This document shows positions 978 through 18,233 of a stretch of DNA of 64,000 nt, piece after piece; within the stretch, counting starts at the first letter, position 1, and the number at the start of each line of letters is the position of its first letter. The notes beneath the pieces are model-generated. The model searched no databases. It was not told the DNA's origin and worked only from the letters and a program-made list of their open reading frames with translations. Position numbers and translations under genes: made by a program. The stretch spans positions 1,116,001 through 1,180,000 of the forward strand of contig CAVYHJ010000002.1 in assembly GCA_963768165.1 (NCBI GenBank), written 5' to 3'. Source of the DNA: CAVYHJ01 sp963768165 [NCBI: uncultured bacterium]. Lineage in GTDB: Bacteria > UBP4 > UBA4092.

Positions 978-2048
978 ATGAATATACGGTTTTCTTATGA
1001 AGACTGGGAACGAATTGTACATGATTGGGATTTATTCCTTGCCGGTGAACTGAAACGACCATTGGTTTGGATCCAGGTTTGGAACCCTCTACACAAACCG
1101 GTTTTGGAAAGAAAAGGATTTCTTCCTCAGTACCCTTCATCCATGAGTCCCAATCAAATTATCGAAATTGAGACAAAGTACCTGAACGGGTTTCATTTTG
1201 TCGGAGATGCTTTCCCAAAATTATTCCTCAATTTCGGTGCTGGTAGTTCTGCCGTCTATTTCGGTTCAAAACCTAACGTTAAAAACGATACCATTTGGTT
1301 TGAACCGATACATAAAGAATTACAGGATATTCACATTGATCTTAACCGCGATAATGATTGGTTCCATAGAATCCAGGCTATTCAACAGGCTGCCTTGGAT
1401 TTATGGAAAGGACAGGTCTTGATTAGCTTGTCCGATATCGGGGGTAATCTCGATATCCTCGCCTCCCTTCGCGGTACTCAGGAATTACTCATGGATTTCC
1501 TGGAATATCCGGAATGCGTGGAGAAATTATCCCGCCAAATTACTTCTGTTTGGCTCGAAATCTATAATGAAGAAGCTGAAAATGTCCTCGGAGTCTGCCG
1601 GGGGACTACACCCTGGGCTTCCGTATTTTCCCCACGTAAAACCTATATGCTTCAAAGCGATATCAGTTATATGATCTCACCTAAAATGTTTGAACAATTT
1701 GTTCTGCCTGACCTGACTACTTGTTGCAATTTCCTCGATGATGGGTTCTATCATCTCGATGGAAAAGGTCAGATCCCTCATCTGGATTTACTCCTTTCAA
1801 TTAATAAACTTAAAGGTGTCCAGTGGATCCCGGGCGATGGGCAACCGGAACCCCAATATTGGCACCATGTCTTATCTAAAATCCGAAATGCGGGAAAATT
1901 ATGTCAACTTTATGTTTCACCTCAAGGCGCACTTCAAATTAAAAACGAATTTGGCGGTGAAGGCTTTATTTTCCATATCGTAACTTGGGAAGAACCTTGG
2001 ACGTTGAATGATGCAGTCGACTTATACCACCAATTAACTCGTTCTTAA
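978..2048 (+). CDS. Uroporphyrinogen decarboxylase (URO-D) superfamily protein
   Basis: A 356-residue soluble protein whose sequence resembles the URO-D/MtaA-like TIM-barrel superfamily, in the divergent branch often annotated uroporphyrinogen-III decarboxylase-like. Features include the central D-I-G-G-N-L-D stretch and the late H-L-D-G-K-G-Q ... G-V-Q-W-I-P-G-D-G segment typical of this branch. Members act either on porphyrins or as corrinoid-protein methyltransferases. No other heme-biosynthesis gene is nearby, so a true HemE role is unlikely and the substrate is unknown. There is no signal peptide. The ATG at 978 lacks a strong ribosome binding site. Family assignment is fairly sure; function is not. 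Confidence 0.7.
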   Translation: MNIRFSYEDWERIVHDWDLFLAGELKRPLVWIQVWNPLHKPVLERKGFLPQYPSSMSPNQIIEIETKYLNGFHFVGDAFPKLFLNFGAGSSAVYFGSKPNVKNDTIWFEPIHKELQDIHIDLNRDNDWFHRIQAIQQAALDLWKGQVLISLSDIGGNLDILASLRGTQELLMDFLEYPECVEKLSRQITSVWLEIYNEEAENVLGVCRGTTPWASVFSPRKTYMLQSDISYMISPKMFEQFVLPDLTTCCNFLDDGFYHLDGKGQIPHLDLLLSINKLKGVQWIPGDGQPEPQYWHHVLSKIRNAGKLCQLYVSPQGALQIKNEFGGEGFIFHIVTWEEPWTLNDAVDLYHQLTRS

Positions 2049-2312
2049 TCCTTATCCTTATTTCTATTATCTTAATCTTACTAAAACGATTGATTTTATT
2101 ATCATTACATATCGTTTATTAGGTATATGCACAGGACTCAAGTAACTGCTGAAGATAGTGATTCGTTAACACATGCCAAGAAAGATGGTTAGCCCTTTTT
2201 TCCACACTACGGGTATCAATTTCTTGATTATGATTATTCCAATGATACATAACTCTTTCTTTATAAAATATTTATCGAGTTGGGTGTATTAAGACTCAAC
2301 AAGGAGTGATCA

Positions 2313-3830
2313 CTACGGGCGTTGAATTCTAATACCATAGACATCTTCGAAATGTATTTTCCCGGTAAAATCGTAAGTGGCATTTGTCTGCATCTGATAT
2401 TGATTAAAATAAATGTTTGGAATCATTGGGTTCAATTTTTTAACTAAAAGTTCTAGTTCGTGGGCGGTTGTAGAATCGTCGCTTGGTTTAATATCATCGA
2501 GAAATTTTCCTGAATTCAAATTACTCAGTGCCTTGAAAGCTTTCATTTTCGTAGTATCGAATTCTATCGGTGAGTAAAAACTAATTCGTATTGAAGTGTC
2601 ATTAGGATATATCTCGTGGATCAAAAGATAATCGTATTTATCATGACCTTGATCAAATAATACGTTATCAACATCGTTATCATCTTCATAATAGAGTAAG
2701 TCAAACGGTTTTGAAGTATCCTCTATTGATACTTCACGGATTACATAATTTTTATTTGTTGTTACTATACTTGATGTTACTAATGAAATTGAATTACCAC
2801 TAATGTCATAGATTCTAGTCGTGCTAGTACTGCAAACGAAGTATACAGAATTTGTTCCTCCACGGGCCTCGTTATATTTACCCCTTACACGATAAAGTGA
2901 AATTAAGCGATTCCCTGCAGGATACCATATACAAAATAGATTTCTCTCGATATCGCATTGATTCGCCAATAGCGGTTTATAAGAGCTAATATCTCTGTAA
3001 TTCTGATTGTCCTCAACGTCCTCCTGTGAAAAAATAAAATCCGCCGGATTTGCTTCGTGTATTGAACCCAGTAAATAAGCGATTGGGAATTTATCGTTGA
3101 AAATCACACCCTTAGAATTCGTTACATCCTTAGATTTATTAGCTGATCCACCGATTTTCGATGTCCCTCCAGATATCTTGATTGACGAAGACTCTTTATC
3201 GTAACACTCATAGTTATATCCCGTCGCATAAAAAATACCACATATGATCTTATCCTTTGGTTTAGCCAATTTATTACTTACAAAAGTACTTACAGTTGAA
3301 TTTGTAATGGTACTAGTGAGATAGTCAATTAACTGTTCTTTGTCAAGTCGCTGTTCAAAAACTGAATATAGAGATAAAGTACAATATTCTACATTTGAGT
3401 TGGCTATGCTTATATTGGCATATGTAAGGAAACTAAGACCGCCACTAATATCATTAGTGCTACTATACGAACTATACAGGGTAATACCTCCTGGGTCATG
3501 ACTTCCCGAGTCATGAGAAATTAGGTCACGAGAAATTGGCTGCAAATAAGTCGTTAACATGTCGCAACTATTGAGGCTTCCAATGCGCGCGAGAATCGCA
3601 TCGTCATCACTAACCTCAACGATATCCCCTAGTTTTAAATTGAACAATGGATTATCAGCTTTCTTGTAGCCCATAGCACTCATGTCCTTCTCAAGGGAAT
3701 GATAGGAATTAATAAATAAGCCACTTTGCAAACTGTTTTTTGAAGCAGTGGCACATCCGGTCAATACTGCTACAAGTGCCACACCTATGTGAAAACATAT
3801 TAACGACAGAAATCTCTTACTTGATCGCAT
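2313..3830 (-). CDS. Large lipoprotein of unknown function
   Basis: About 505 residues. The N-terminus has a basic start (MRSSKRF), a hydrophobic core and a lipobox L-T-G-C around residue 25, so it should be exported and lipid-anchored. I place the start at 3830 rather than at the upstream in-frame codon at 3887, because a strong GGGAGGA ribosome binding site precedes 3830 and the signal peptide then begins properly. The mature part is rich in Asp, Ser and Asn with no motif I recognise. It lies within the tRNA-bracketed stretch and is divergent from the AraC-like gene at 4264. It is hypothetical in function. Confidence 0.7.
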   Translation of the reverse strand: MRSSKRFLSLICFHIGVALVAVLTGCATASKNSLQSGLFINSYHSLEKDMSAMGYKKADNPLFNLKLGDIVEVSDDDAILARIGSLNSCDMLTTYLQPISRDLISHDSGSHDPGGITLYSSYSSTNDISGGLSFLTYANISIANSNVEYCTLSLYSVFEQRLDKEQLIDYLTSTITNSTVSTFVSNKLAKPKDKIICGIFYATGYNYECYDKESSSIKISGGTSKIGGSANKSKDVTNSKGVIFNDKFPIAYLLGSIHEANPADFIFSQEDVEDNQNYRDISSYKPLLANQCDIERNLFCIWYPAGNRLISLYRVRGKYNEARGGTNSVYFVCSTSTTRIYDISGNSISLVTSSIVTTNKNYVIREVSIEDTSKPFDLLYYEDDNDVDNVLFDQGHDKYDYLLIHEIYPNDTSIRISFYSPIEFDTTKMKAFKALSNLNSGKFLDDIKPSDDSTTAHELELLVKKLNPMIPNIYFNQYQMQTNATYDFTGKIHFEDVYGIRIQRP

Positions 3831-4263
3831 TGTTGTATCCTCCCATCTTATGACTATCTGAATGTTTGATTGATCATAAAGCCACACTGAAAATGTCGTT
3901 TAAAAACGACTACACCAAGAGCTTAACAAGCAAAATTATCATTGTCAATCATATAATTGTCTCAAAATGGGAAGTCATAGAAACTTCTTGATTTGATCAA
4001 AGCCCCAACATTTATAGTGAGCAGGATTGGCACATATACATAATAATAATGTGGTTCTGGAGTCCAGACTCATCAAACCCCAGGAAACCTCTAAAGTATG
4101 CGGGTAAGACAGGCACTTATCCCTGTCTCAGAGGAAAGAATATAAAAGCTGTCTCAGAATGGGAAATATTACATAAATTGGTATTGTTTTTGAAATTTTT
4201 GTTATTTTATGAAATTATATCATTAGATAACACACTTACCGTAAAGAGATTAAGGATAGATTG
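3831..4263. other. Divergent intergenic region
   Basis: Separates the leftward lipoprotein gene from the rightward AraC-like gene. It contains a possible short frame from 4049, but with no ribosome binding site or family resemblance, so I do not call it. It very likely holds both promoters. I could not single out convincing -35/-10 boxes. Confidence 0.4.
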
Positions 4264-4590
4264 ATGGCATTAGAGATAAAGAAAGTAACTCAATATATCA
4301 AAGAACACGTTAAACCGGGTCTCCGTAAGAAAAAGAAGGTCACTGTCCAAAGAGTAGCACGGCATTTTAAGGTCAGCCGTCGGTGGTTGGCCGAATTCTT
4401 CCAACGGGAGAAAGGGATGACACCAAAGCACTATATTCATCAAGTTCAATTTCAGTCTATTGAGCGGTTGTATAAGTGTAATAACCGTTCTAGTATATTT
4501 GCTATGGCCAGCAAGGTGGGTCTGCTGCGAGCTACCTATTACCGGTTGGTTAAGAAAATGACCGATGAAGCACCGGGTAGACGGTACTGA
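4264..4590 (+). CDS. Solitary AraC-type DNA-binding domain protein (paralog 1)
   Basis: A 108-residue basic protein that consists only of a two-part helix-turn-helix like the AraC/XylS C-terminal domain. The first HTH is around V-A-R-H-F-K-V-S-R-R-W-L; a second helical part lies around G-L-L-R-A-T-Y-Y-R-L. No sensor domain is present, so it may be a constitutive regulator or a DNA-binding factor of a mobile element. The start is set at 4264, not the TTG at 4261, because AAGGA at 4252-4256 gives 7-nt spacing. Close relatives are encoded at 4689-5024 and 44044-44394 in this window. Its target is unknown. Confidence 0.65.
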   Translation: MALEIKKVTQYIKEHVKPGLRKKKKVTVQRVARHFKVSRRWLAEFFQREKGMTPKHYIHQVQFQSIERLYKCNNRSSIFAMASKVGLLRATYYRLVKKMTDEAPGRRY

Positions 4591-4688
4591 AAATTCAAAA
4601 AGAAATAGGCCTTATTGAAAGATAGCGGTCTACAGTGGAGTTGCTACCACTTATCCTTCTCTAGGCAATACAAATTAGAGATATCACG

Positions 4689-5024
4689 CTAACAAGCATT
4701 CGAGGGGGTTGGTGAATTAATGACCATATGTTCTTTGTTGAATTTGTATATTCGCCGATAATAAGTACTTCGGGATATTCCGAGTTCAGGAATTACCTTT
4801 TTCAGGGGTTCCTGGCATTTTAACGTAAGGCATTTCTGCCAATACATATTTTCGCGCTGATGGATATATTCATGCGGGGTGCAGTGGAGTTCCATTTGAA
4901 AGATACTGCTGACCCACCGCCGGGTAATGTTAAAGTGTTTCGCTACTCTGTCCACGGCAACTTTTTTTCCCAATTCGACTTGTTCATCAATGAATCGAAT
5001 AATTTCCTTAATATTTACCTTCAT
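4689..5024 (-). CDS. Solitary AraC-type DNA-binding domain protein (paralog 2)
   Basis: 111 residues, converging on paralog 1. It shares the plan I-x-x-F-I-D-E-Q-V ... V-x-R-V-A-K-H-F-N-I-T-R-R-W-V ... Y-I-H-Q-R-E, then a second HTH around E-L-G-I-S-R-S-T-Y-Y-R-R. No ligand-binding domain. The start is well supported by GGGAGG about 7 nt upstream. Sequence divergence from paralog 1 is large, so the duplication is old or the two were acquired separately. Likely a DNA-binding regulator; no target can be named. Confidence 0.65.
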   Translation of the reverse strand: MKVNIKEIIRFIDEQVELGKKVAVDRVAKHFNITRRWVSSIFQMELHCTPHEYIHQRENMYWQKCLTLKCQEPLKKVIPELGISRSTYYRRIYKFNKEHMVINSPTPSNAC

Positions 5025-5867
5025 CCTTTACCTCCCATAGTGCTATTTTATATCTTAATTTTTTACCCCCTTCTACTATAGGAGACTATAGAATGCATTA
5101 TTTCCTTACAAAAAATTTTTCTATCTCTTTAACTCTTTTAATATAAGAGATTTGAAAACTGAATACTTCTGGATAAGAGGAGCAAGTTCACTATCCATAT
5201 TCATAATAGGGCCTTCTTAATAATATGTTTCTAAGTTATCGTAGCTGTCATTTCTGTTGATACAATACTGGATTAATTAGAGATAAGTTATTCCGGAGTG
5301 TTATTGATTGTTGTCTGGATTGTATGTCTTCAGGTTCACTTGAACAATTGAGCTAAAAATATTTTACACTCTACCCTGGATTTGTGTAGGTTTTAGCATC
5401 TAGCAGATCGTACAGCTTTCCCCGTAGGTGGGTCAGTATCTCTTAGCCCTCTGGGTTCGTAAAACCTCCACCTTTCATCCCGCCTACACCAGGTTGGGGA
5501 AAATATTCTCCAAGGCTTCACCTGGCGATACCCTTTCTTTTTACCCGACAACTTCCAGTCTTCTCAGTCCAAAGTAGTCGCCGAATAGTGACCGATAAGC
5601 TCTTCCATTGAGATGGAATTTTGTAAAAATAGTCGGTTTTTTCACCTTCTAATCCAGATGAATCCGATTAATGCACAGTCACTTTAGTGTCATTTTTTAC
5701 AGAATCCATTTTGTGGGTCCGTTCCTTCTTATAAAGCAAGTACGCCAGTATCATGGACATGAGAATGTTCTCCACTGTTTTGAGTATGATACTCTACGTG
5801 GAATAGTGTATCGTAACACTACTGCATCTGGATGCCTTCCTTTGACATCCGTACAAACTTTATGGAT
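5025..5867. other. 843-bp gene-poor stretch with a candidate structured RNA at about 5395-5545
   Basis: Mostly AT-rich with no convincing gene. A G+C-richer block at about 5395-5545 stands out. Read on the minus strand it can form GTAGGCGGG pairing with CCCACCTAC (one mismatch) across about 50 nt, a neighbouring CCAGGT/ACCTGG helix, and a GGAGAAT/ATTTTCC hairpin. It matches no RNA family I know and could equally be a remnant of a mobile element. Forward frames in 5671-6056 overlap the DUF2628-like gene and look spurious. Confidence 0.35.
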
Positions 5868-8202: not shown

Positions 8203-9921
8203 ATGCTAAATGAAGTGACTGTTGAATACTTTAAAAGATTTCAAAAAGAGTCGTTTGATATTTCTGGAAATATTGTTTTAGCTGGTCCCAATAATATTGG
8301 GAAAACGACAGTAATCCAAGCCATTGCAGTATGGAATTTAGCCTTACAGAAGTGGATAGCAGATCGTGGTCCAGAATCGGGTTCAAAAGCGAAAAAATAT
8401 ACGGGTGTTGGAATCACCAGAAAAGATTTTACTGCAATACCATTACGTGAAATGAATTTATTATGGAATAATTGCTCTACTGCACTTTCAAGAGGCGAAT
8501 TACAAGAAAAACAAAAACTTGGGACACCTCGTATTCTAAAGATAAGATTAGCCGGAAATAAAGACGCTGCACCTTGGAAAGTTTGCTTTGAATTTACTTA
8601 TCGATTTCCCGAATTAATTTCTGCTAAGCCTTCAGCCGATACAGATAAAAGCCAAATTAATTTGTTAAAAAATGATTTAAGGGTTGTACATGTGCCTCCA
8701 TTTTCCGGGATTGGTGCAGAAGAAACTCGCTACGATAAACCATATCAAGATCATCTTATTGGACAAGGTAAGCCGGGTGATATTCTCCGAAACTTATTAG
8801 TCGAAGTATTTGAAGGCAAGGAAAACCAATGGGAAAAGTTATGTAATGATATTGAAGAAATATTTAATATGAAATTATTACCGCCGGTTTATGTAGGGCG
8901 ACCTTTTATTGTATGTGAATATCAATCTTTAAATAAGACAGGCGATCGTGAAAGAAGTTCTACAAAACTAGATATTGCTTCAGCTGGTAGCGGCATGCTT
9001 CAAGTCCTTATGTTACTTGGTTTTTTTTATGCTAGACCAGCAACAATTTTATTACTTGACGAACCGGATGCTCATTTACATGTTATTTTACAGAAACAAG
9101 TATACGATAGGTTAAGGAATGTTGCAGATCGAAATAATTGCCAGTTAATTATTGCTACACATTCAGAAGTTATTGTTGAGAGCACTTCACCAAATCAAAT
9201 CATATCTTTTTTTAGGCACCCTCATAGATTACTTGAAGATACTGAAAAAGATCAGGTTCGTGAGGCTTTGAAAAGATTGACTAGTTTAGATATTCTTTTA
9301 GCAGAGCAGTCTCCGGGTGTATTGTATGTTGAAGGAGAAACAGATTTGAATTTACTTCGGGAATGGTCTCGTATACTAAAACATCCAACTTGGGATTTTC
9401 TTTCTAAAAATCTATTCTGGCATGATAATAGAGGTGGGCATCCACGAGAATCACGTGCGCATTTCTTTGCGCTTAAATCTGTAAGACCTAATTTAAAAGG
9501 TATACTTCTTCTCGACGGTGACAATCGAAAATTACCGGATCGTGAAATATCTACTGAAGGGCTTAAAATCATCCGATGGAAACGTTATGAAAGTGAAAAC
9601 TATTTGATTCATCCTAAGGTTCTTTCTCGTTTTGTGCAATCAAAAACATTTGAATTGTTTGCTGAAGAACGGATGAAACAGGGATTAGATTACCTAAAAG
9701 ATCAATTACCGCCTGCTGTATTTAACAATCCTTTAGAAGAACATGATTATCTAAACGTAACGCCTGCAAGTAAAACTCTTTTACCGGTTTTTTTGAAAGC
9801 AGTAGATATTCCCTTAACAAAAAATGAATATTATCAAATAGCCGCTCAGATGAAAATAGAAGAAATCCCAGATGAAGTTGGAGAAAAATTAGACATTATT
9901 AAAGATACTTTTGAATCTTGA
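8203..9921 (+). CDS. OLD-family ATP-dependent nuclease (AAA ATPase with Toprim domain)
   Basis: 572 residues. The N-terminal ABC/SMC-type ATPase has Walker A G-P-N-N-I-G-K-T at residues 28-35, an S-A-G-S-G signature-like stretch, Walker B L-L-L-D-E-P-D-A-H-L-H and the H-loop I-I-A-T-H-S. A Toprim domain follows: V-E-G-E-T-D (acidic Glu) and L-L-L-D-G-D-N (D-x-D), which bind the metals for DNA cleavage. This is the OLD overcoming-lysogenization-defect plan. Gabija GajA has the same plan but is paired with a UvrD-like GajB, and no helicase gene is adjacent here. It fits a stand-alone class 1 OLD enzyme, possibly for phage defence. Only a weak GGG lies before the ATG. AT-rich codon use suggests transfer. 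Confidence 0.85.
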   Translation: MLNEVTVEYFKRFQKESFDISGNIVLAGPNNIGKTTVIQAIAVWNLALQKWIADRGPESGSKAKKYTGVGITRKDFTAIPLREMNLLWNNCSTALSRGELQEKQKLGTPRILKIRLAGNKDAAPWKVCFEFTYRFPELISAKPSADTDKSQINLLKNDLRVVHVPPFSGIGAEETRYDKPYQDHLIGQGKPGDILRNLLVEVFEGKENQWEKLCNDIEEIFNMKLLPPVYVGRPFIVCEYQSLNKTGDRERSSTKLDIASAGSGMLQVLMLLGFFYARPATILLLDEPDAHLHVILQKQVYDRLRNVADRNNCQLIIATHSEVIVESTSPNQIISFFRHPHRLLEDTEKDQVREALKRLTSLDILLAEQSPGVLYVEGETDLNLLREWSRILKHPTWDFLSKNLFWHDNRGGHPRESRAHFFALKSVRPNLKGILLLDGDNRKLPDREISTEGLKIIRWKRYESENYLIHPKVLSRFVQSKTFELFAEERMKQGLDYLKDQLPPAVFNNPLEEHDYLNVTPASKTLLPVFLKAVDIPLTKNEYYQIAAQMKIEEIPDEVGEKLDIIKDTFES

Positions 9922-10088
9922 TTTTTAAAGCACTCCGATTTTATCTCTGCGATACTTCCCAAAGCCATCAGCTATTAGTTTTTAGTAAATGCTTAAATTT
10001 GAATCCTCTAGTCAAGATAGGGAATAGTAAAATATAATTTTCCTTCTGCAATTCTCACCTTCCAACATTTTATGTTTTAATAACAGGT

Positions 10089-10505
10089 ATGAAAAAGAAA
10101 AATAAAATCGTTGGTGGGAGTTATGTTTTGGTGATTGAAGTAAAACGGTAAACGCGGGTGAGAGTTGGGAGGATGGGGGAGTGGGTCTTTCCGAAGGGGT
10201 TTTATAGTTATGCGGGGAGTGCGATGAGGGGGTTGGAGAAAAGAGTGCGGAGACATTGTTCAAAAAGGAAAAAGTTGCATTGGCATATAGATTATTTATT
10301 AGCGGGACGTGGCGTCCGAATTCGCAAGGTGTTGACCTATCCGAGCCGGTATAAAAACGAGTGCCGGATTAATCAGGGATTGAAAAAGTCCGGTGAAGCG
10401 CAAGTCTTGATACCGGGATTTGGGTCATCGGATTGCAGGTCGGGATGTGGAAGTCATTTGTTGTATTGGGGGAAAAGAGTTATCCACAACTTATTACACC
10501 TGTAA
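10089..10505 (+). pseudogene. DUF123 (GIY-YIG-like) protein gene with an in-frame TAA
   Basis: The DUF123 core is clear: V-G-R-M-G-E-W-V-F-P-K-G-F-Y-S-Y-A-G-S-A-M, then H-W-H-I-D-Y-L-L, and Cys residues near the C-terminus. The family normally begins with a strand such as Y-V-L-V-I-E-x just before R-x-G-R-x-G. Exactly that is encoded from an ATG at 10089 (M-K-K-K-N-K-I-V-G-G-S-Y-V-L-V-I-E-V-K-R), but a TAA at 10149-10151 interrupts the same frame. A GTG at 10158 could start a protein lacking the first strand, but has no ribosome binding site. I therefore read this as a nonsense-mutated gene, or a base error. Family members are small nuclease-like proteins sometimes fused to endonuclease III. 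Confidence 0.7.
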
Positions 10506-10528
10506 AAATATTCCACAAAAATGTTTGG

Positions 10529-10556
10529 AAAACTTTCTACAATTGTAGAAAGTTTT
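10529..10556 (+). terminator. Perfect 12-bp hairpin after the DUF123 gene
   Basis: AAAACTTTCTAC and GTAGAAAGTTTT pair around a 4-nt AATT loop 23 bp after the DUF123 stop. The 3' arm ends in TTTT, and because the arms are complementary it could work in both directions. Confidence 0.55.
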
Positions 10557-10623
10557 ATCTTCAATAAAATCAATCCTTTTTCAAAAGTGGTATGGACACT
10601 GTCCGCACTTTTCTTACATTTTT

Positions 10624-10640
10624 GGGTAGTGGTACAGTTT
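10624..10640 (+). repeat. Left terminal inverted repeat of the IS1-like element
   Basis: 17 bases starting GGGTAGTGG, an exact inverse match to 13366-13382. It is preceded directly by ATTTTT (10618-10623). Confidence 0.85.
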
Positions 10641-10643
10641 GAC

Positions 10644-10672
10644 TTGACAAATAGAAAAGTTTCGCCTATATT
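10644..10672 (+). promoter_or_regulatory. Sigma70-type promoter at the left end of the IS1-like element
   Basis: TTGACA at 10644-10649 and TATATT at 10667-10672, spacing 17 bp, starting 3 bp after the left inverted repeat. It would drive the passenger genes from a start near 10679, giving a leader of about 30 nt before the GTG at 10711. Confidence 0.65.
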
Positions 10673-10710
10673 CACCATATTCAAGAAATTCAATTCCAAA
10701 GAGTATTATT

Positions 10711-11841
10711 GTGAATTTACAAACCCGTGTTGATTTATACAATCAATTAGAGGATGAGCGTAAACATCCTTTAATAGTTTATGTGACTTCTCAAAGAAAT
10801 GGAGCCCCCGGCTTTATGTCGGCGGATACCCCAGATGAATTAATTGACCAAATTGAGTGTATTTCTTCATCGGAAAAGGAAATTGATTTACTCATTGAGT
10901 CAAAAGGTGGGGATGGTTTAGTTGCATGGAGAGTTATATCTTTTCTTAGAGACCGTTTCAATAAAGTTAATATAATTGTCCCTCATGCTGCGTATAGTGC
11001 AGCGACAATGCTTGCATTAGGTGGCGATACAATCCTAATGGGTAAATATGGGATTCTTGGTCCAACTGACCCGCAAATACAGCTGGTTCAAAAGGATGGA
11101 ACAATACAAAATTTTGGTTATGAAGATATTACTGCATTTTTGGAATTTGTAAAAAAAGATGCTGGCTTGACAGAGCAAGCTCATATTGATAGTGCATTTA
11201 AAACCTTGTGTGGTAATGTAGAACCATTAGTATTGGGTGGTGCAAGCAGGGCTTCATCTTTATCAATTAGTATCGGTGAAAAATTGCTTTTAATGCACAT
11301 GACGGAGCCCGAACAAAAGGCAAAAGCGGCTGAAATATCGAGAAAATTAAATAAGAATTTCTTTAGTCATGGACATTCATTGGATAGAAAAGAAGCAAGA
11401 GATATAGGGTTGAAAATAGAAATACCGAAACCAAAAGTCGAGGATATTATTTGGAAAATACATCAAAGTTTTGAAAAGGAATTAGAGGGTCGTAAACCTT
11501 TTAATCCTATTTCAGAATTTCTTTCAGACCCTGGAGCGGGTGCATATACAGCATCTCCACCACCAATTACTATTCCTCCACAACTTAATCAACAAATGGT
11601 GATGCAGGTAATAGAGCAATATATACAGGCTCAAATGAATGCAACAACTCCAAATGTTATAAGGGAAATAAAGCACGCCTTTGTTGAAAGCAATCGTTTG
11701 GCTACAGTTTTTATTGCTAAATATAAAATTATATGCATGAGAACGGCAGATATGAAATTTATGGGGAATTGTATAAAGCTGGATGAATACTGGAAAAACA
11801 TTGAAATTCCGAAAATTGAAAAAAGTGATACCGTTAAATAA
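10711..11841 (+). CDS. Serine dehydrogenase proteinase-family (ClpP/crotonase fold) passenger protein
   Basis: 376 residues from a GTG start. The first 230 residues resemble the SDH/SppA-like serine protease family. A glycine-rich oxyanion segment E-S-K-G-G-D-G lies at residues 63-69; the likely nucleophile is Ser96 in P-H-A-A-Y-S-A-A-T-M; the L-G-P-T-D-P-Q stretch at 116-122 is typical of the family. No signal peptide, so it should act in the cytoplasm, unlike SppA. The last ~120 residues (proline-rich, then helical) are not a domain I know. It is the first gene of the IS1-like element behind a good promoter. Its target is unknown, and a link to transposition or host takeover is only inference. 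Confidence 0.75.
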   Translation: MNLQTRVDLYNQLEDERKHPLIVYVTSQRNGAPGFMSADTPDELIDQIECISSSEKEIDLLIESKGGDGLVAWRVISFLRDRFNKVNIIVPHAAYSAATMLALGGDTILMGKYGILGPTDPQIQLVQKDGTIQNFGYEDITAFLEFVKKDAGLTEQAHIDSAFKTLCGNVEPLVLGGASRASSLSISIGEKLLLMHMTEPEQKAKAAEISRKLNKNFFSHGHSLDRKEARDIGLKIEIPKPKVEDIIWKIHQSFEKELEGRKPFNPISEFLSDPGAGAYTASPPPITIPPQLNQQMVMQVIEQYIQAQMNATTPNVIREIKHAFVESNRLATVFIAKYKIICMRTADMKFMGNCIKLDEYWKNIEIPKIEKSDTVK

Positions 11842-11862
11842 TTACTTTAAAAAATACTTAGA

Positions 11863-12078
11863 ATGGAGTATACTATAGGTATGGTTACAAATAATAACAA
11901 TTCAAGATATTTCGCTTCTCCCTATGTGATAGATATGCCGAATAAATTTCAAGGGAAAGTTTTTAAATCAGATTTGATCGAATCAAAGCAAGAAATGTTT
12001 AAAGGTTCTGAGTTGCAATTTGATAATAATAAAGCGAGAAATATTTCTTCACTCATTCCTTGCCAACCAAAGAAATAA
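11863..12078 (+). CDS. Small protein of unknown function inside the IS1-like element
   Basis: 71 residues from the ATG at 11863, or 65 from the ATG at 11881. The GGAG at 11865 lies too far before 11881 to settle the choice. It is polar and Asn-rich with no membrane helix and no known motif. It follows the protease-fold gene by 21 bp on the same strand and the pair was probably transcribed together. It could be a substrate, partner or inhibitor of that protein; nothing in the sequence decides this. I am unsure that it is translated. Confidence 0.45.
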   Translation: MEYTIGMVTNNNNSRYFASPYVIDMPNKFQGKVFKSDLIESKQEMFKGSELQFDNNKARNISSLIPCQPKK

Positions 12079-12087
12079 TTTTTTTGC

Positions 12088-12116
12088 TTGACATATTAGT
12101 AGTTATAACATATAAT
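12088..12116 (+). promoter_or_regulatory. Consensus sigma70 promoter for a leaderless gene
   Basis: TTGACA at 12088-12093 and TATAAT at 12111-12116 with an ideal 17-bp spacer. Transcription should start near 12123, the A of the ATG of the HTH gene, so the mRNA would have no leader. Confidence 0.75.
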
Positions 12117-12122
12117 ATTTAT

Positions 12123-12314
12123 ATGAGTAAAATAAAGTATTTGAATGTAGCTAATAGCGCGGATTATCTTACGGTTGACGAAGTATCAACTGAAACAAAT
12201 CTTAGACCGGAGACCATAAGAAATTATTTGAATCTTGATAGGCTTACTACTTATAAATTCAAAACCCTTACCCTTATAAGTAGGGAAGAAATAGAAAAAT
12301 TAGAGAAAAAATAG
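12123..12314 (+). CDS. Small helix-turn-helix (MerR/excisionase-like) protein
   Basis: 63 residues. The part Y-L-T-V-D-E-V-S-T-E-T-N-L-R-P-E-T-I-R-N-Y looks like the winged-HTH of excisionase/MerR-type DNA-binding proteins, followed by an I-S-R-E-E-I-E-K-L-like end. I choose ATG 12123 over the TTG-like extension at 12060 because a consensus promoter places the transcript start at 12123. It lies between the passenger genes and the transposase and may control transposase expression or bind the element ends. Assigned by pattern only. Confidence 0.6.
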   Translation: MSKIKYLNVANSADYLTVDEVSTETNLRPETIRNYLNLDRLTTYKFKTLTLISREEIEKLEKK

Positions 12315-12507
12315 AAGGAGTTTTTTTTGCCCATGAATATTATAATTTATAATATATCACAAAGTAGAGCACCACCAAATAAAAAAGCCTTTACAGTGCT
12401 TGAACACCGCAAAGGCTAGTAACTCTTAGTAAGTCCGAAGGACTAACCAAAAGTAGACCACTTTCAGGATAAGTCCTTCGAGGAAAAAAGTCAATACCGG
12501 AGGATTT
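12315..12507 (+). ncRNA. Structured leader region upstream of the IS1-like transposase (candidate)
   Basis: 193 bp without a gene but rich in inverted repeats. A 13-bp imperfect hairpin pairs AGCCTTTACAGTG with CACCGCAAAGGCT (about 12390-12418), and AGTCC/GGACT encloses GAA at about 12432-12444. A later AAGTCCTTCGAGG (about 12472-12484) can compete for the same GGACT sequence. This could be an attenuator-like control or a separate RNA. No promoter of its own is obvious. The transposase ribosome binding site (CGGAGGA) follows. Confidence 0.35.
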
Positions 12508-13332
12508 ATGAACATATTATCAAAGGAACAAAAAATACAAGCAATCAATGCACTATGTCAAGGAATGAGTTTAAGAGCGGTTACACGATTAGTAGGCGTA
12601 CATCGGACTACAGTAATGAAATTGATGGTAAGGGTAGGGCAACACTGCGAAGATTTAATGGTTCAGCACATGAAAAGCCTTGACTGTCAACGATTAGAAG
12701 TGGACGAAATATGGAGTTTTTGCGGTAAAAAAAGATTGCATTTAACACCCGAAGAAAGACTTAACCCGAACGTGGGAGACCAGTATATATTTTATGCCAT
12801 TGACCCGATAACAAAAATCATACCCGCTTTCTTAATCGGCAAAAGAACAAGGGAAAATGCTTTTGAGTTTATGGTAAGACTGAAAAGCTCTCTCAATGGT
12901 TGTCGTCCGCAAATATCCACTGACGATTTTAATTCTTACCCTGATGCCATTTCTTCGGTATTTCGTTCTAATGTGGATTATGGACAAATCACTAAAAAAT
13001 ATGGTCAAGAGGATTCTGGACGTGGTCGGTATTCTCCACCATGTGTCATCGGCACAAAGAAAGAGGTTATATCAGGAAATCCTAACCGTCGGCATATATG
13101 CACTTCGATAATTGAGCGTAGCAATCTAACTATCAGGACGCTCCAGAATCGCTTTACAAGGCTATCAATAGGGTTTAGTCGTAAACTGGATAATATGAAG
13201 GCTTCCGTAGCCATTCATTTCGCCTATTATAATTTTTGTTGGATTCATAGGACGATAGGAACTACACCTGCTGTAAGACACGGTTTAACTGATAAGGTTT
13301 GGAGTATTGCAGACTTGATAGGAGATTGCTAA
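12508..13332 (+). CDS. IS1-family transposase
   Basis: 274 residues in one continuous frame, so no IS1-style frameshift is needed. The N-terminal HTH is around M-S-L-R-A-V-T-R-L-V-G-V-H-R-T-T-V. The DDE catalytic core shows V-D-E-I-W-S-F (first Asp), S-T-D-D-F-N-S-Y (second Asp) and I-I-E-R-S-N-L-T-I-R (Glu), followed by the H-F-A-Y-Y-N-F-C-W-I-H-R end common in these enzymes. It cuts and joins the element ends. CGGAGGA precedes the ATG. All key residues are present, so it looks active. Confidence 0.85.
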   Translation: MNILSKEQKIQAINALCQGMSLRAVTRLVGVHRTTVMKLMVRVGQHCEDLMVQHMKSLDCQRLEVDEIWSFCGKKRLHLTPEERLNPNVGDQYIFYAIDPITKIIPAFLIGKRTRENAFEFMVRLKSSLNGCRPQISTDDFNSYPDAISSVFRSNVDYGQITKKYGQEDSGRGRYSPPCVIGTKKEVISGNPNRRHICTSIIERSNLTIRTLQNRFTRLSIGFSRKLDNMKASVAIHFAYYNFCWIHRTIGTTPAVRHGLTDKVWSIADLIGDC

Positions 13333-13365
13333 ACTTGGCACATATTATGCGTATGCCATTATTTG

Positions 13366-13382
13366 AAACTGTACCACTACCC
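13366..13382 (-). repeat. Right terminal inverted repeat of the IS1-like element
   Basis: Exact reverse complement of 10624-10640, followed directly by ATTTTT (13383-13388), which repeats the left flank. Confidence 0.85.
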
Positions 13383-13395
13383 ATTTTTGTCGGTT

Positions 13396-13428
13396 TTCAA
13401 AGTCGCACAGGACGACTTTGAAATTTTT
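13396..13428 (+). terminator. Rho-independent terminator right of the IS1-like element
   Basis: Perfect 10-bp stem TTCAAAGTCG/CGACTTTGAA with a 7-nt loop, then ATTTTT. It is placed to end rightward transcription leaving the element. Confidence 0.75.
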
Positions 13429-13588
13429 ACCCAATAGAAATAATCTATCTCCCATAAAATCAATGATTTAATAAATTATCACTAATAGTTGAGGAATTCT
13501 CGCATTTGCCAGTAGGAGTGGAGTTGAAAATAACAATTCCAGTCCTCCCCCGGTTTGTCATGTCTTAAAATATTTGGAAAAAATAGTG

Positions 13589-15118
13589 TTAGGCAGAGGG
13601 GCGGTAGGGTGCATGGAGACCCAAATCCATCATTTTGACAGGGAGGTCAGGAATCCGGCTTAAGGCTCGTTTTCGGAATGGACTGTAAAACAATTTCATT
13701 AAATCCGTAATCTTCATGAATCTACTAAAGGTGCGAAGAAGACGGAAGGTCTGAATCGGACGGAAGAAAAAGCGCTGAAAGAATAATAATCCATATCCCT
13801 TCATACGAATACTATTGAGTTTCTCACTCGGCAAAATGGTTGGGTCAATATCCGAGCACTTGAACCATTTATTCCAATCTTTCGCATCGTCAATGATTCC
13901 CCGATTGACATATTCCTTCCACAACGGCGTACCCCTGTAGGCGCACAAGCGATTAAAGCCAAAGGTATCCAATTTGAGCCGGGCGGCAAACCGGAAACTC
14001 TCCATAATTTCCTGCTCGGATTCATCGGGAGAACCAATCAGGAAAAATCCATGCACCCGTTCAATCCCCTGCTTTTTCGCTTCCTTGACGGCATTTTCAA
14101 TTTGCGCGAGGGTTTGATGTTTTTTCAGGCGGTCGAGTGTCTTCTGCGAACCGGATTCAATTCCAAACATAAGTAAAGCGCAGTTTGCCTTGCTCATATT
14201 CGATAATTGGTCAACCGCAATAGAATCCACCCGGCCTTCGCAACCCCATTTGAATTTAAGTTTACGTTCGATGATACCGTTGCAAATATCGGAGATTCGT
14301 TTGCGTTTCAGAAGGAAATGGTCGTCGGTCAGATAGATGGTACGAAAACCCATATCGCTCAATTCCTGCATTTCACCCAAGACATGTTCCGGTGAACGGC
14401 TGCGCCATTTGGATGCGGAAAGAGACGGAATATCACAATAGACGCACGGGTAGGGACAACCCCGCGAGGTTTGCATGGTACAAAATTTATCCAGAGAAAG
14501 AACCGCGGGTACATCCAAAGGAAGCGATTCGATAAAATCAATCGGAAGACTGGTGCGGTCGGGATAAGGGAATTGGTCGAGGTCCCATTGCAGGGGACGC
14601 GGGGCATTCTCGACAATTTTATCGCCATCCCGCCAGACAAGACCCAACACATTGCCGGGAGTTTTGAGGTTGTTTAAATAATCCGGGAGAAGTTCTTCGC
14701 CCTCGCCTACTCCGACAGAATCAATATCTAGACAATCCAATAAAATATGGTCAGAATTCATGGTCGCAAAGGGACCTCCGACAATGATGGGAATATTGGG
14801 AACTGCCGTTTTCAATTGTTTGGACATTTCTTTAGTATTGGGATAGGTGGTGGTGGAAAGAAAAGAAAGAGCAATGAGATCGGGATTCTCTTCCCGTGCG
14901 GCTTGAACGATATCCTGTATTTTCATCTGCGGGTGACAGGTATCGAACATGTGTACTTGATGACCCTTTTGCCTTAGGACTGGGGCGATAGTCTGGATGC
15001 CTAAGGGCGGAAACCCCATGACTTTAACTCGATTACCGCCGGTATTTTCTTGGTTAAGTCTTTCGGGAAGAAGTTGGTAATAGTTCTCGTCTTCGACGTA
15101 GATTAAAAATACCTTCAT
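13589..15118 (-). CDS. B12-binding domain radical SAM protein
   Basis: 509 residues from the ATG at 15118, chosen over an in-frame start at 15172 because GAGGTG stands upstream and the protein then begins with the M-K-V-F-L-I-Y strand of the cobalamin-binding fold. Residues 1-150 form a B12-binding Rossmann-like domain. Cys221, Cys225 and Cys228 (C-P-Y-P-C-V-Y-C) bind the 4Fe-4S cluster that cleaves SAM. The C-terminal part is helical. Related proteins (BchE-like class) do methylations, ring formation or unknown chemistry. The substrate cannot be told. It is flanked by unrelated genes and is probably a single-gene unit. Confidence 0.88.
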   Translation of the reverse strand: MKVFLIYVEDENYYQLLPERLNQENTGGNRVKVMGFPPLGIQTIAPVLRQKGHQVHMFDTCHPQMKIQDIVQAAREENPDLIALSFLSTTTYPNTKEMSKQLKTAVPNIPIIVGGPFATMNSDHILLDCLDIDSVGVGEGEELLPDYLNNLKTPGNVLGLVWRDGDKIVENAPRPLQWDLDQFPYPDRTSLPIDFIESLPLDVPAVLSLDKFCTMQTSRGCPYPCVYCDIPSLSASKWRSRSPEHVLGEMQELSDMGFRTIYLTDDHFLLKRKRISDICNGIIERKLKFKWGCEGRVDSIAVDQLSNMSKANCALLMFGIESGSQKTLDRLKKHQTLAQIENAVKEAKKQGIERVHGFFLIGSPDESEQEIMESFRFAARLKLDTFGFNRLCAYRGTPLWKEYVNRGIIDDAKDWNKWFKCSDIDPTILPSEKLNSIRMKGYGLLFFQRFFFRPIQTFRLLRTFSRFMKITDLMKLFYSPFRKRALSRIPDLPVKMMDLGLHAPYRPSA

Positions 15119-15412: not shown

Positions 15413-17500
15413 TTATTTATTTATCTTTTTACGTTTCTTTTTGATTTGAGTATCATCAAAGGGGGCGGTAATTTGTTGATAGAGGTTAAAGAGAAATTCG
15501 ACTCTTTCCCTGTCGCTATGGAAGGCTTCTCCCCGATAACATTTTTCTACCGCTTTATCCAGTTTTTGATGGGCTTTTAGGAGATCGGCGGGCATATATA
15601 ATGGGTCATATAAATCTGCTAATGTTGAAATGGAAAACTTTGTTCTAACATCCAAGACTTCCTTTGACGCTTCTTCTACATTTTTAATTTGTTTTTCTTT
15701 AGGATTCAGAGGCCAAGGGTAATTATTGTAAACAAGATTTCCAGAGTAACGATACCTTGATTCCAATCTTCCACAAAGTTGTCTCATCCAAGCCATGTGC
15801 ATAGAAGAAGTTAATATACCAAAATGGTAAAGGTTAGGATTTAAAATCACCGAACATGTATCTCCAACAATATAATTTTGGTCAAAGAAAGCCATGGGAA
15901 TATATTGCCGATTCTCTGAAGTGACTCTTGGTATTAAGATATAAGAGGATGTTGGTTGCCGTATTTCTCCGAAAAGCATGGAAAGATTTGCTATATTTCT
16001 TGTTTGGCTTTTTTTACTAGCTAATCTAAATGCTTTTACTGCTGCTAATCTTCTGCGGATTTCCTCATTATGACGATATTCTTCAGGAGGAATATCCTTT
16101 AACCAAAAACACCATTTTTTTAAACCATTAAGGAATTCGACCGCACCTAAAAAGGGTTTGATAAACTCCATGATGCTTGGATTCTCTGCTTCCAGTTTTC
16201 TTTTTTCTTGATCATCTAATAAAAGATACCCACCGTCAGTAGGCTTATTTCCATAATAGAAGAGTGGTACATCACAGATAGGATTTGTTCTATCTGGTAT
16301 CACAATATTTTTTCCATCTATCAAATAGTTGTTGATATTCGTAGCCGTGATAATACTCATTTTATTTGTTTTAGGTTCATAGTCATAAATACGTTTATTA
16401 GAAACATCTTTTAAACTAAAACCAATAATAACGACATGAACATGAGCTTTCCCTCTTGCTTCACTTTCCCATGCAAAAGTCCGATGAGCAAAATGGATTT
16501 TCAAATTATTGGGAAAGAATAATTTGTATGCCAGAACCGGAACTTGCTCACCTTGTGTAATTGAATTTGTAGAAACAAATGCACAACGTATATCCGTACC
16601 TTGGATATATTCTGCCGCCTTTTTATACCAGCATGTAACATAATCCAGATTATTGATTCCCCCGTCTGTCATTCCCCATGCAATCCCCATATCCTCTTTT
16701 TGCTGAGGTGTCATTAAATGCTTACCCACAAAGGGAGGATTCCCTAAAACATAACTACATTCCTTCGCTGGAAGAATAGTTTGCCAATCCAATCGCAGAG
16801 CATTGCCAACCTGAATATGCGGAGATTTCTTTAAGGGTAAGCGGACAAAATAAAGATGAAATGCCTCGGCTAGTAATTTATTCATTTGATGGTCCATCAG
16901 CCAAAGGGCGACTTCGGCAATGCGGGCGGGCCATTCTCCAATTTCAATCCCATAGAAATTATCCACGTCAATGACAGATAAAGTAGCTATATTTTCTACT
17001 TGTTCCGGGATAGTAATCTCTTTTAATAAATCAGTTTCCAGTTTACGAATTTCCCGGTACGATATAACCAAGAAGTTACCACAACCGCATGCCGGGTCAA
17101 GAAATTTTAAAGATGCCAGTTTCTTATGAAACCTTTTAAATTGAACGAGTCTTTGGGGTACAGAACGGATAGTTTTAATATGTTCAAATTCTGTTTTCAG
17201 GTCGTCCAGAAATAAAGAACCAATTAGTTTCAGGATGTCCCGCTCACTGGTATAATGCCCCCCAATTTGTCTGCGCTCTTTATCATCCATGACCCCTTGA
17301 AACATGGAACCAAAAACTGCCGGGGATACTTTTGCCCAGTTAAAATGGCAACATTCCAATAAAGCACTTCGCATGTCTTTATTAAAATCCGCAAACCGTA
17401 GGCGTTCACCAAATAAATCCCCATTGACATAAGGAAAAGCGTTTAAATCCTCATCCAAATTCCGTTGGCGTTTGTCCAAAAGGCGTATCCAATACCTCAA
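15413..17500 (-). CDS. MmeI-like type IIG restriction-modification protein, C-terminal part (frameshift-separated)
   Basis: About 690 residues forming the larger part of a protein whose N-terminus is at 17451-18233. It holds the methyltransferase core: motif I L-D-P-A-C-G-C-G-N-F-L, motif IV N-P-P-F, and the F-V-S-T-N-S-I-T-Q-G-E-Q stretch. A target-recognition region and a helical C-terminus (L-Y-D-P-L-Y-M-P-A-D-L-L-K-A-H) follow. It would methylate adenine in DNA. The apparent first residues (about 17470-17500) are out of the ancestral frame; the true sequence enters at D-K-R-Q-R-N-L. The enzyme is normally one chain of about 900-950 residues, so it is broken unless the shift is an error or is bypassed. 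Confidence 0.8.
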   Translation of the reverse strand: MRYWIRLLDKRQRNLDEDLNAFPYVNGDLFGERLRFADFNKDMRSALLECCHFNWAKVSPAVFGSMFQGVMDDKERRQIGGHYTSERDILKLIGSLFLDDLKTEFEHIKTIRSVPQRLVQFKRFHKKLASLKFLDPACGCGNFLVISYREIRKLETDLLKEITIPEQVENIATLSVIDVDNFYGIEIGEWPARIAEVALWLMDHQMNKLLAEAFHLYFVRLPLKKSPHIQVGNALRLDWQTILPAKECSYVLGNPPFVGKHLMTPQQKEDMGIAWGMTDGGINNLDYVTCWYKKAAEYIQGTDIRCAFVSTNSITQGEQVPVLAYKLFFPNNLKIHFAHRTFAWESEARGKAHVHVVIIGFSLKDVSNKRIYDYEPKTNKMSIITATNINNYLIDGKNIVIPDRTNPICDVPLFYYGNKPTDGGYLLLDDQEKRKLEAENPSIMEFIKPFLGAVEFLNGLKKWCFWLKDIPPEEYRHNEEIRRRLAAVKAFRLASKKSQTRNIANLSMLFGEIRQPTSSYILIPRVTSENRQYIPMAFFDQNYIVGDTCSVILNPNLYHFGILTSSMHMAWMRQLCGRLESRYRYSGNLVYNNYPWPLNPKEKQIKNVEEASKEVLDVRTKFSISTLADLYDPLYMPADLLKAHQKLDKAVEKCYRGEAFHSDRERVEFLFNLYQQITAPFDDTQIKKKRKKINK

Positions 17501-18233
17501 ACAATTGGGCGATTTTAATCCCTAAATCAGAGCCATCAGGAGAAGTGTGGTTTTCAATATACGAGGTAAATAAATTAGGTTCAAAAATAGTCGTATCTTC
17601 CGCAAAGAGGCAGAAAAGAATACGCACTAGAAAACGTTCCAAGTCATGTCCCTTAAAGCCACCTTCTTCCAAAGCATCATGGAGGTTAGCCATCTTGAGG
17701 GCGGCATCAACGTTTACAGGGTCTTCGGGATTTAATTTGAGAGCTTTTTCCCCTTTAATAAAGGCGAACTCGCGGACATGATCAACTAATTCTTGTAAAG
17801 GAAACTCCTTGGAATATACTCTACGACCACAAAAAATAGGTAATTCATATTCTTCATCTGGTTCCAAGTCATAAAGAGCTATCTTTTTAAAATCTGAAAC
17901 AATCACATATTGCGGTACTTCATCAAGACGTTTTTCATTGATTAAATATTGAATATAATCAAACGCCTCAGATTTTGCTTCTCCCAAATCTTTACCGGTG
18001 GACTTATGCTCGACCAGCAGTTTGCCTTTCCAAAATAAATCTATAAAGGAATAATTCTTACTAAGGTTACGGACAGGTTCTTCAAAGGTTGCTACGACCC
18101 GTCTTTTTATGCCAAAGACTTCAAAGAATTCATTCCAGAAAGTTTGTTTTTCCGCCTGCTCACTGGTTTCCCCAGCCCAGTCTTTGCTAAATTGACGGGC
18201 GCGATTTTTTACTTCATTCCACGATAAATTCAT
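17451..18233 (-). CDS. MmeI-like type IIG restriction-modification protein, N-terminal nuclease part (frameshift-separated)
   Basis: 260 residues. The PD-(D/E)XK-like nuclease core is seen as F-I-D-L-F-W-K-G-K-L-L-V-E-H-K-S; the E-H-K triad is typical of MmeI-like enzymes. The following helical spacer (F-L-V-R-I-L-F-C-L-F-A-E-D) also matches. The frame runs into T-P-F-G-Q-T-P-T-E-F-G and stops, whereas the family continues with T-P-x-D-K-R-Q-x-N-L-D. Removing one A from the AAAA run at 17478-17481 (plus strand) restores a single chain. A TATAAT lies 10 nt before the ATG and there is no ribosome binding site, so its transcript may have almost no leader. Confidence 0.8.
   Translation of the reverse strand: MNLSWNEVKNRARQFSKDWAGETSEQAEKQTFWNEFFEVFGIKRRVVATFEEPVRNLSKNYSFIDLFWKGKLLVEHKSTGKDLGEAKSEAFDYIQYLINEKRLDEVPQYVIVSDFKKIALYDLEPDEEYELPIFCGRRVYSKEFPLQELVDHVREFAFIKGEKALKLNPEDPVNVDAALKMANLHDALEEGGFKGHDLERFLVRILFCLFAEDTTIFEPNLFTSYIENHTSPDGSDLGIKIAQLFEVLDTPFGQTPTEFG

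What the first reader, a model, noticed from the sequence alone, without database searches (positions are those of the whole stretch)
10624..13382. IS1-like element carrying a serine-protease-fold protein and two small genes
Seen: exact 17-bp ends, ATTTTT flanks, complete IS1-type transposase, and 1.7 kb of same-strand cargo with its own promoters. Ordinary IS1 elements are about 0.8 kb with only transposase genes. The cargo is a cytosolic SDH/ClpP-fold protein with an intact nucleophile region, a 71-residue unknown and an excisionase-like HTH. Cargo that is not a resistance gene could serve transposition control, host protease hijack or defence. This is the best candidate for an undescribed system in the window.
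Basis: partly seen in the sequence, partly recalled or inferred. Interest (0 to 1): 0.75.

Follow-up and report, generated by a model that had tools for sequence, protein, structure and literature searches.

The report
IS1-like transposon carrying a protease module
This is a small jumping DNA element related to the well-known IS1, but it carries extra genes, including a ClpP-fold protease, and it belongs to a widespread lineage whose members swap different extra genes, several of them resembling anti-phage or toxin-antitoxin genes.

Summary
It encodes an IS1-family DDE transposase, an SDH/ClpP-fold peptidase with an intact Ser96 region, a 71-aa unknown and a 63-84-aa HTH protein. It is not a one-off. 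Of 84 loci with related transposases, 69 have both ends under my criteria, 62 of them with an exact 8-bp duplication; sizes are 1.35-5.6 kb. Passengers are the rule and are exchanged: two Nitrospira elements share ends and transposase but not cargo. Recognisable passengers include RosmerTA-, PD-Lambda-2- and CapP-like proteins, restriction-modification and toxin-antitoxin genes. SDH-type peptidases occur in 4 of 71 elements, needing 4 changes on the transposase tree. A small left-end gene occurs in 57 of 71. Best reading: a passenger-carrying IS1 lineage whose cargo is often a small defence or addiction module, the protease module being an uncharacterised one. That function is inferred. IS with passengers (tIS) are known, so this is a new variant of a known kind.

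The parts
10617..10624 (.). left copy of the 8-bp target-site duplication CATTTTTG
10625..10640 (+). left terminal inverted repeat GGTAGTGGTACAGTTT; first 18 bp identical to the end of the Planctomycetaceae element L009
10644..10672 (+). sigma-70-like promoter TTGACA-17-TATATT (11/12), just inside the left end, ahead of the peptidase gene
   Evidence: consensus match only
10711..11841 (+). SDH/ClpP-fold serine peptidase, 376 aa; Ser96, Asp120 and His220 invariant in alignments A3 and A5
11863..12078 (+). ORF of 71 aa (or 65 from the second Met), no match; possible small partner of the peptidase
12060..12314 (+). small HTH protein (84 aa from TTG; probably 63 aa from ATG at 12123); HTH_17/excise-like below cut-off
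   Evidence: start read from the sequence
12088..12116 (+). perfect sigma-70 consensus promoter TTGACA-17-TATAAT, ending 7 nt before ATG 12123 of the HTH gene
   Evidence: consensus match only
12508..13332 (+). IS1-family DDE transposase in one open frame, 274 aa; D66, D139, E203 invariant in A1
13366..13381 (-). right terminal inverted repeat
13382..13389 (.). right copy of the 8-bp target-site duplication CATTTTTG

Best explanation
A passenger-carrying IS1-family transposon (a 'tIS'). Well supported by anatomy: the single-frame DDE transposase goes with GGTAGTG-type ends and 8-bp target duplications, and most of the lineage has a fixed frame (left end, usually a small KGG-motif gene, exchangeable cargo, transposase, right end; some have cargo after the transposase too). 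Inferred: the cargo pays for its passage by protecting the host from phage or by making loss of the element costly. In this copy the cargo is a stand-alone SDH/ClpP-fold serine peptidase, a 71-aa candidate partner and an HTH regulator with its own promoter. I think the peptidase is most likely the switchable part of a defence or toxin-antitoxin module, cutting a partner or target protein under stress, by analogy with ImmA-type proteases in RosmerTA, with the HTH protein setting expression.
For: Ends and duplication are exact. 69 of 84 related loci have both ends under the criteria; 62 of the 69 have an exact 8-bp duplication, lengths 1,350-5,598, median 3,173. A separate Pfam sweep of 247 genomes gave 6 further lineage members: 4 had both ends, 4 of 4 carry passengers, 3 of 4 have the duplication. 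Relatives outside the lineage (at most 31% identity, or no detectable match) for which a convincing pair of ends was seen are short: 1,286, 1,202, 1,294 and 759 bp (L192, L194, L206, L187) and 1,178 bp (L180). Cargo exchange: L065 and L086 share about 240 bp of left end (79%) and 853 bp with transposase and right end (85%) and nothing between; L072 and L078 share 158 bp at the left and 914 bp around the transposase, nothing between. Of 137 passenger ORFs scanned: RmrA 10, CapP 11, PD-Lambda-2_B 8, CapH 4, RmrT 2, MTase_II 2 (overlapping matches; 25 of 253 families shown); M78 13, PemK 2, PIN 2, Tsp45I 1, Zeta 1 (25 of 66 families shown); MmeI in L035; HicB L053, Clp L031, NYN L072. SDH in 4 of 71 elements, 4 changes on the tree. 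SDH relatives also lie antisense between holin and antiterminator-Q genes in an E. coli plasmid of prophage type, and antisense to the flanking ORFs in 7 similar viral contigs.
Against: The window's peptidase and 71-aa protein match no PADLOC model up to E 0.01, and the HTH only mad1 weakly (1.8e-4); the SDH proteins of relatives that were scanned have none either, apart from a weak Orf5 match of one L058 piece. Many passengers have no assigned function: of 30 passengers scanned singly, mostly chosen because nothing was known of them, 20 have no Pfam family. M78/XRE proteins are common on many mobile elements (recalled), so 'defence' is partly a label of the library. The 23 best SDH-subfamily places in 591 genomes of two phyla (132 genomes had any match) show no such transposase in the DNA fetched around them, and of the loci L087-L155 checked only those of the L045 and L058 elements themselves do; so this SDH type is not tied to the element. 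The window row is a long branch on the tree, its place flagged as unsure. No function has been measured for any of these passengers here.
Confidence: 0.55

Rival explanations
1. The cargo controls the element itself: the HTH protein represses the transposase region and the peptidase removes it under stress, as ImmA does to ImmR on its conjugative transposon.
For: A perfect promoter and the HTH gene lie directly upstream of the transposase, and an imperfect inverted copy (85% over 20 bp) of the promoter region lies at 12333-12352, between the HTH gene and the transposase (I3). The ImmA precedent is described in PMC10440598 (passages).
Against: Transposase and ends are kept while cargo changes completely (L065/L086; left end and transposase for L072/L078), and the sister L009 has other ORFs, among them a methyltransferase-like one that clusters with an ORF of L007. 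A control system would be expected to follow the transposase.
Confidence: 0.2
2. An ordinary passenger-carrying IS already filed in ISfinder (ISMhu11 subgroup of IS1); the cargo is a neutral hitchhiker.
For: tIS are a recognised category (PMC7986276, PMC3129680, PMC11891212; passages). I recall, from no call, that ISfinder lists ISMhu11 elements up to about 4.6 kb.
Against: Neutral hitchhiking does not readily explain the return of the same cargo kinds: SDH scattered over the tree with 4 changes, M78 proteins in 13 of 137 passengers, and one 251-286-aa unknown family in 4 elements. No formal comparison with random host genes was made.
Confidence: 0.2
3. A chance capture of chromosomal genes by an IS1 element in this one genome.
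For: The exact three-gene cargo was found only here, and the SDH type occurs without such a transposase in other genomes.
Against: Other lineage members carry SDH or Clp-type peptidases (L002, L045, L058, L031), and no bare copy was seen among the 71 surveyed elements, apart from the doubtful 1,350-bp L036.
Confidence: 0.05

Closest known systems
IS1 family (IS1 and single-ORF relatives)
   Same: IS1 transposase models, DDE residues, ends starting GGTAGTG, 8-bp duplication
   Different: One open frame instead of the insA/insB' frameshift (recalled); 2.76 kb instead of the 759-1,294 bp of the out-lineage relatives whose ends were seen here; passengers between left end and transposase
Transporter IS (tIS), for example ISNha5 of the IS1595 family
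   Same: IS with passenger genes unrelated to transposition; regulators and methyltransferases are reported passengers (PMC11891212 passage)
   Different: No IS1595 model among the matches listed at E up to 0.1; here passengers are the rule in the lineage, peptidases recur, and a small KGG-motif gene recurs
RosmerTA / ImmA-type protease modules
   Same: A protease plus HTH plus small partner; RosmerTA-like genes ride on other elements of the lineage
   Different: The window protein is an SDH/ClpP-fold serine peptidase, not an M78 metalloprotease, with no PADLOC match
SDH/SppA/NfeD-type ClpP-fold peptidases (1510-N, PDB 2deo/3bpp)
   Same: Shared core with the serine region; best solved relatives of the SDH profile by sequence, E about 2e-5
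   Different: Long extra C-terminal part, no NfeD family listed for the window protein, below the Clp_like_SDH equivalog cut-off (68.2 of 250 bits)

Membership tests
IS1 family | IS1-type transposase | tested here: met
   PF03400 over its cut-off; NF033558 1.4e-16 but 61 of 100 bits
IS1 family | DDE triad | tested here: met
   D66, D139, E203 invariant in the 5 rows of A1; that these are the catalytic ones is recalled
IS1 family | ends GGnnnTG and 8-9 bp duplication (consensus recalled) | tested here: met
   GGTAGTG ends, 8-bp CATTTTTG
IS1 family | two frames joined by frameshift (classical IS1) | tested here: not met
   single 274-aa frame; single-ORF members are recognised (recalled), so this excludes only classical IS1
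ISMhu11 subgroup of IS1 | transposase clusters with ISMhu11 | not testable with these tools
   no ISfinder sequences at hand; 0 papers hold at least 2 of ISMhu11, ISMhu, IS1 family
IS1595 family | IS1595-type transposase model | tested here: not met
   no IS1595 model among Pfam and NCBIfam matches up to E 0.1; that both libraries hold such models is recalled
tIS (IS with passengers) | genes unrelated to transposition between the IS ends | tested here: met
   three ORFs between left end and transposase
SDH_protease (PF01972) | profile match with the serine region | tested here: met
   66.2 bits, residues 11-124; Ser96 invariant in A3 and A5
SDH_protease (PF01972) | proteolytic activity | not testable with these tools
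   needs an assay; the structure model had mean pLDDT 37.7 and was not used
RosmerTA | M78/ImmA antitoxin and a toxin | tested here: not met
   no such match in the window proteins
excisionase | score over the excise model cut-off | tested here: not met
   17.1 of 28.8 bits

The most novel reading that the evidence does not exclude
A lineage of IS1-family transposons, in genomes labelled with about 15 phyla, is a dedicated vehicle for small anti-phage or addiction modules dropped into a fixed frame (left end, KGG-motif gene, exchangeable cassette, transposase, right end). Its SDH/ClpP-fold peptidase with small partners is an undescribed module of that kind. If so, unknown passengers of this lineage are a ready list of candidate defence systems.
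Probability: 0.35. Interest if true: 0.8.

Novelty: new variant of a known kind. Interest (0 to 1): 0.58.

Why it matters
IS elements are usually thought of as transposase-only. Here an IS1 lineage carries cargo as a rule and exchanges it, and much of the recognisable cargo resembles phage defence, restriction-modification or toxin-antitoxin genes. If true, elements of about 3 kb with exact ends become a clean place to look for new minimal defence modules, and explain how such genes hop between replicons without large islands.

Tried and rejected
Close relatives of the window peptidase and of the transposase in viral contigs by single-protein patterns: none. Nucleotide relatives of 10000-14000 in plasmids: none. 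RNA family at the gathering score in 10500-13500: none. A structure model of the peptidase from a 6-row alignment had mean pLDDT 37.7, so no fold search was made. Solved relatives of the transposase: none up to E 0.1. A conserved small partner next to SDH genes: small ORFs often follow, but only those of L160 and L161 proved related (the near-identical viral contigs were left out of that comparison), so the 71-aa ORF stays an unproven partner. A claim of 'protease enrichment' was not pursued, because M78 proteins are explained by RosmerTA/CapP-like modules. IS1595 membership was considered and not supported.

Literature: ten searches showed me no paper on defence or peptidase passengers in IS1-family elements; for only part of the listing was shown. 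The library lacks most subscription papers, and neither the 2009 IS1595 paper nor the 2014 IS review is held, so I do not claim that this is absent from print. Of the papers cited I saw passages only.
Full report
Observation. The inverted pair GGTAGTGGTACAGTTT at 10625-10640 and 13366-13381 is exact and the only such pair in the window. Reading outward, both ends are followed by CATTTTTG, an 8-bp duplication. The element is 2,757 bp.

Genes. The transposase (12508-13332) matches PF03400 over its cut-off and transpos_IS1 at 1.4e-16, below that model's cut-off, and no IS1595 model up to E 0.1. The 376-aa protein (10711-11841) matches SDH_protease at 66.2 bits. Ser96, Asp120 and His220 are invariant among the 5 sequences of A3 and the 6 of A5 (four of the six in A5 are near-identical); that they form the active site is inference. 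The closest solved sequences are the 1510-N/NfeD proteases. A perfect promoter ends 7 nt before ATG 12123, the likely start of the HTH gene, and an 11/12 promoter stands just inside the left end.

Relatives. 69 have both ends under the criteria and 62 of those an exact 8-bp duplication; lengths are 1,350-5,598, median 3,173. The 15 without a pair include L006, whose ends were seen; L073, with divergent ends and an 8-bp duplication; L075, with an end motif on the right and a weak left match; and 12 others that show one recognisable end motif; several lie near contig ends. Adding the window and L006 gives 71 elements for the cargo survey. L057 and L060 are probably one locus split over two contigs, and L068 holds a duplicated segment, so counts are slightly redundant. 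L036 (1,350 bp, no duplication, two short doubtful ORFs) may be bare or decayed. Hosts carry 15 phylum labels in the tree printout; most are metagenome bins, so single labels may be wrong.

Separate check. PF03400 was sought in 247 genomes of one phylum. Of 30 loci returned, 7 belong to the lineage (one is L007 again). Of the other 6, extended, 4 have both ends, all 4 carry passengers and 3 have the duplication; 2 showed no pair, one of them cut by its contig end. Of the 23 loci outside the lineage, 4 had convincing ends within the 1.5 kb or less held on each side: 759 bp (the only one with a duplication), 1,202, 1,286 and 1,294 bp. L195 had a weaker pair at 853 bp and L202 a long pair 1,960 bp apart, both without duplication; the rest showed no convincing pair, so their sizes are unknown. 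Of five more distant plasmid relatives, one Deinococcus element (about 24% identity) has ends 1,178 bp apart, without duplication; the other four gave no convincing pair.

Cargo. The 306 ORFs (open frames of 45 aa or more chosen by length, not gene calls; some are surely spurious) fall into families. The most frequent is a small protein, mostly 63-121 aa, with a GGxKGGxARA...IAxxAAxARW motif. A profile built from 36 members finds it in 57 of 71 elements, on the + strand in 54, with a median start 2% into the element (partly circular, since the profile comes from the same elements). The window element lacks it. Of 137 passengers of 125 aa or more (window genes and one antisense family left out), M78 matched 13, P63C 5, SDH 3, PemK 2, PIN 2, proteasome 2, with Tsp45I and Zeta once each. 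PADLOC gave CapP 11, RmrA 10, PD-Lambda-2_B 8, CapH 4, mad2 4, RmrT 2; one protein can match several of these. Of the 30 passengers scanned singly, mostly chosen as unknown, 20 have no Pfam family; an MqsA match in L086 is below its cut-off.

SDH. Four of 71 elements carry it: the window, Acidiphilium L002, a Rhodospirillales bin L045 and Scalindua L058, where it lies in two frames. L031 carries a Clp-type peptidase. On the transposase tree the SDH label needs 4 changes, both among all rows and against the XRE-M78 rows, where starred branches force at least 3; shuffled labels need 3.8 on average, so SDH is not clustered. The window row and its sister L009 are long branches, the window's flagged as unsure, though their shared 18 terminal bases agree with the pairing. 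Outside elements, 132 of 591 genomes of two phyla have some SDH match (one of them is the genome of L058). The 23 best places, fetched with up to several kb around (some cut by contig ends), have no such transposase; with 1.5 kb around in most cases, none of the loci L087-L155 does except those of the L045 and L058 elements. In an E. coli plasmid of prophage type the SDH gene lies antisense between holin and antiterminator-Q genes, and in 7 similar viral contigs it lies antisense to the flanking ORFs, save for one 77-aa ORF in L095.

Exchange. L065 and L086 align over about 240 bp at the left and 853 bp through transposase and right end, with nothing between; L072 and L078 over 158 bp at the left and 914 bp around the transposase, with nothing between (the right end of L078 was not found). 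The window and L009 share 18 of 18 terminal bases but no other nucleotide match.

Reading. That this is a passenger-carrying IS1-family transposon is well supported. That its cargo is a defence or addiction module rests on the company it keeps and on the prophage location of relatives. The roles of the 71-aa and HTH proteins are guesses. Passenger-carrying IS are a known category (passages), and RosmerTA proteases are described as antitoxins of anti-phage systems in PMC10440598 (passages), so I file this as a new variant of a known kind.

Noticed in passing
window 15413-18233 (-): MmeI-type restriction-modification gene split over two overlapping frames, 3' of the element (MmeI_N and helicase spacer in one ORF; methyltransferase, target recognition and C-terminal domains in the other).
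   Followed up: partly
window 8203-9921 (+): AAA_15/AAA_21 ATPase (the AbiEii-like AAA class) just upstream of the element, so defence-like genes lie on both sides.
   Followed up: partly
57 of 71 elements, for example L026 4706-5005: Small KGG/ARAxxL...IAxxAAxARW protein at the left end of most lineage members; no Pfam match for the two examples scanned. Its role is unknown.
   Followed up: partly
L035 5099-6112 and L039 4159-5121 (-): Proteasome-family passengers on two elements, one beside an MmeI-type gene; L027 6061-7128 fell in the same loose cluster and looks similar but has no Pfam match.
   Followed up: partly
L058 5796-6724: The SDH gene of the Scalindua element lies in two frames, so it may be decayed or a sequencing error.
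   Followed up: no
L070, L032, L044, L218: A passenger family of 251-286 aa without PADLOC match (tested singly on L044) recurs in four elements.
   Followed up: no
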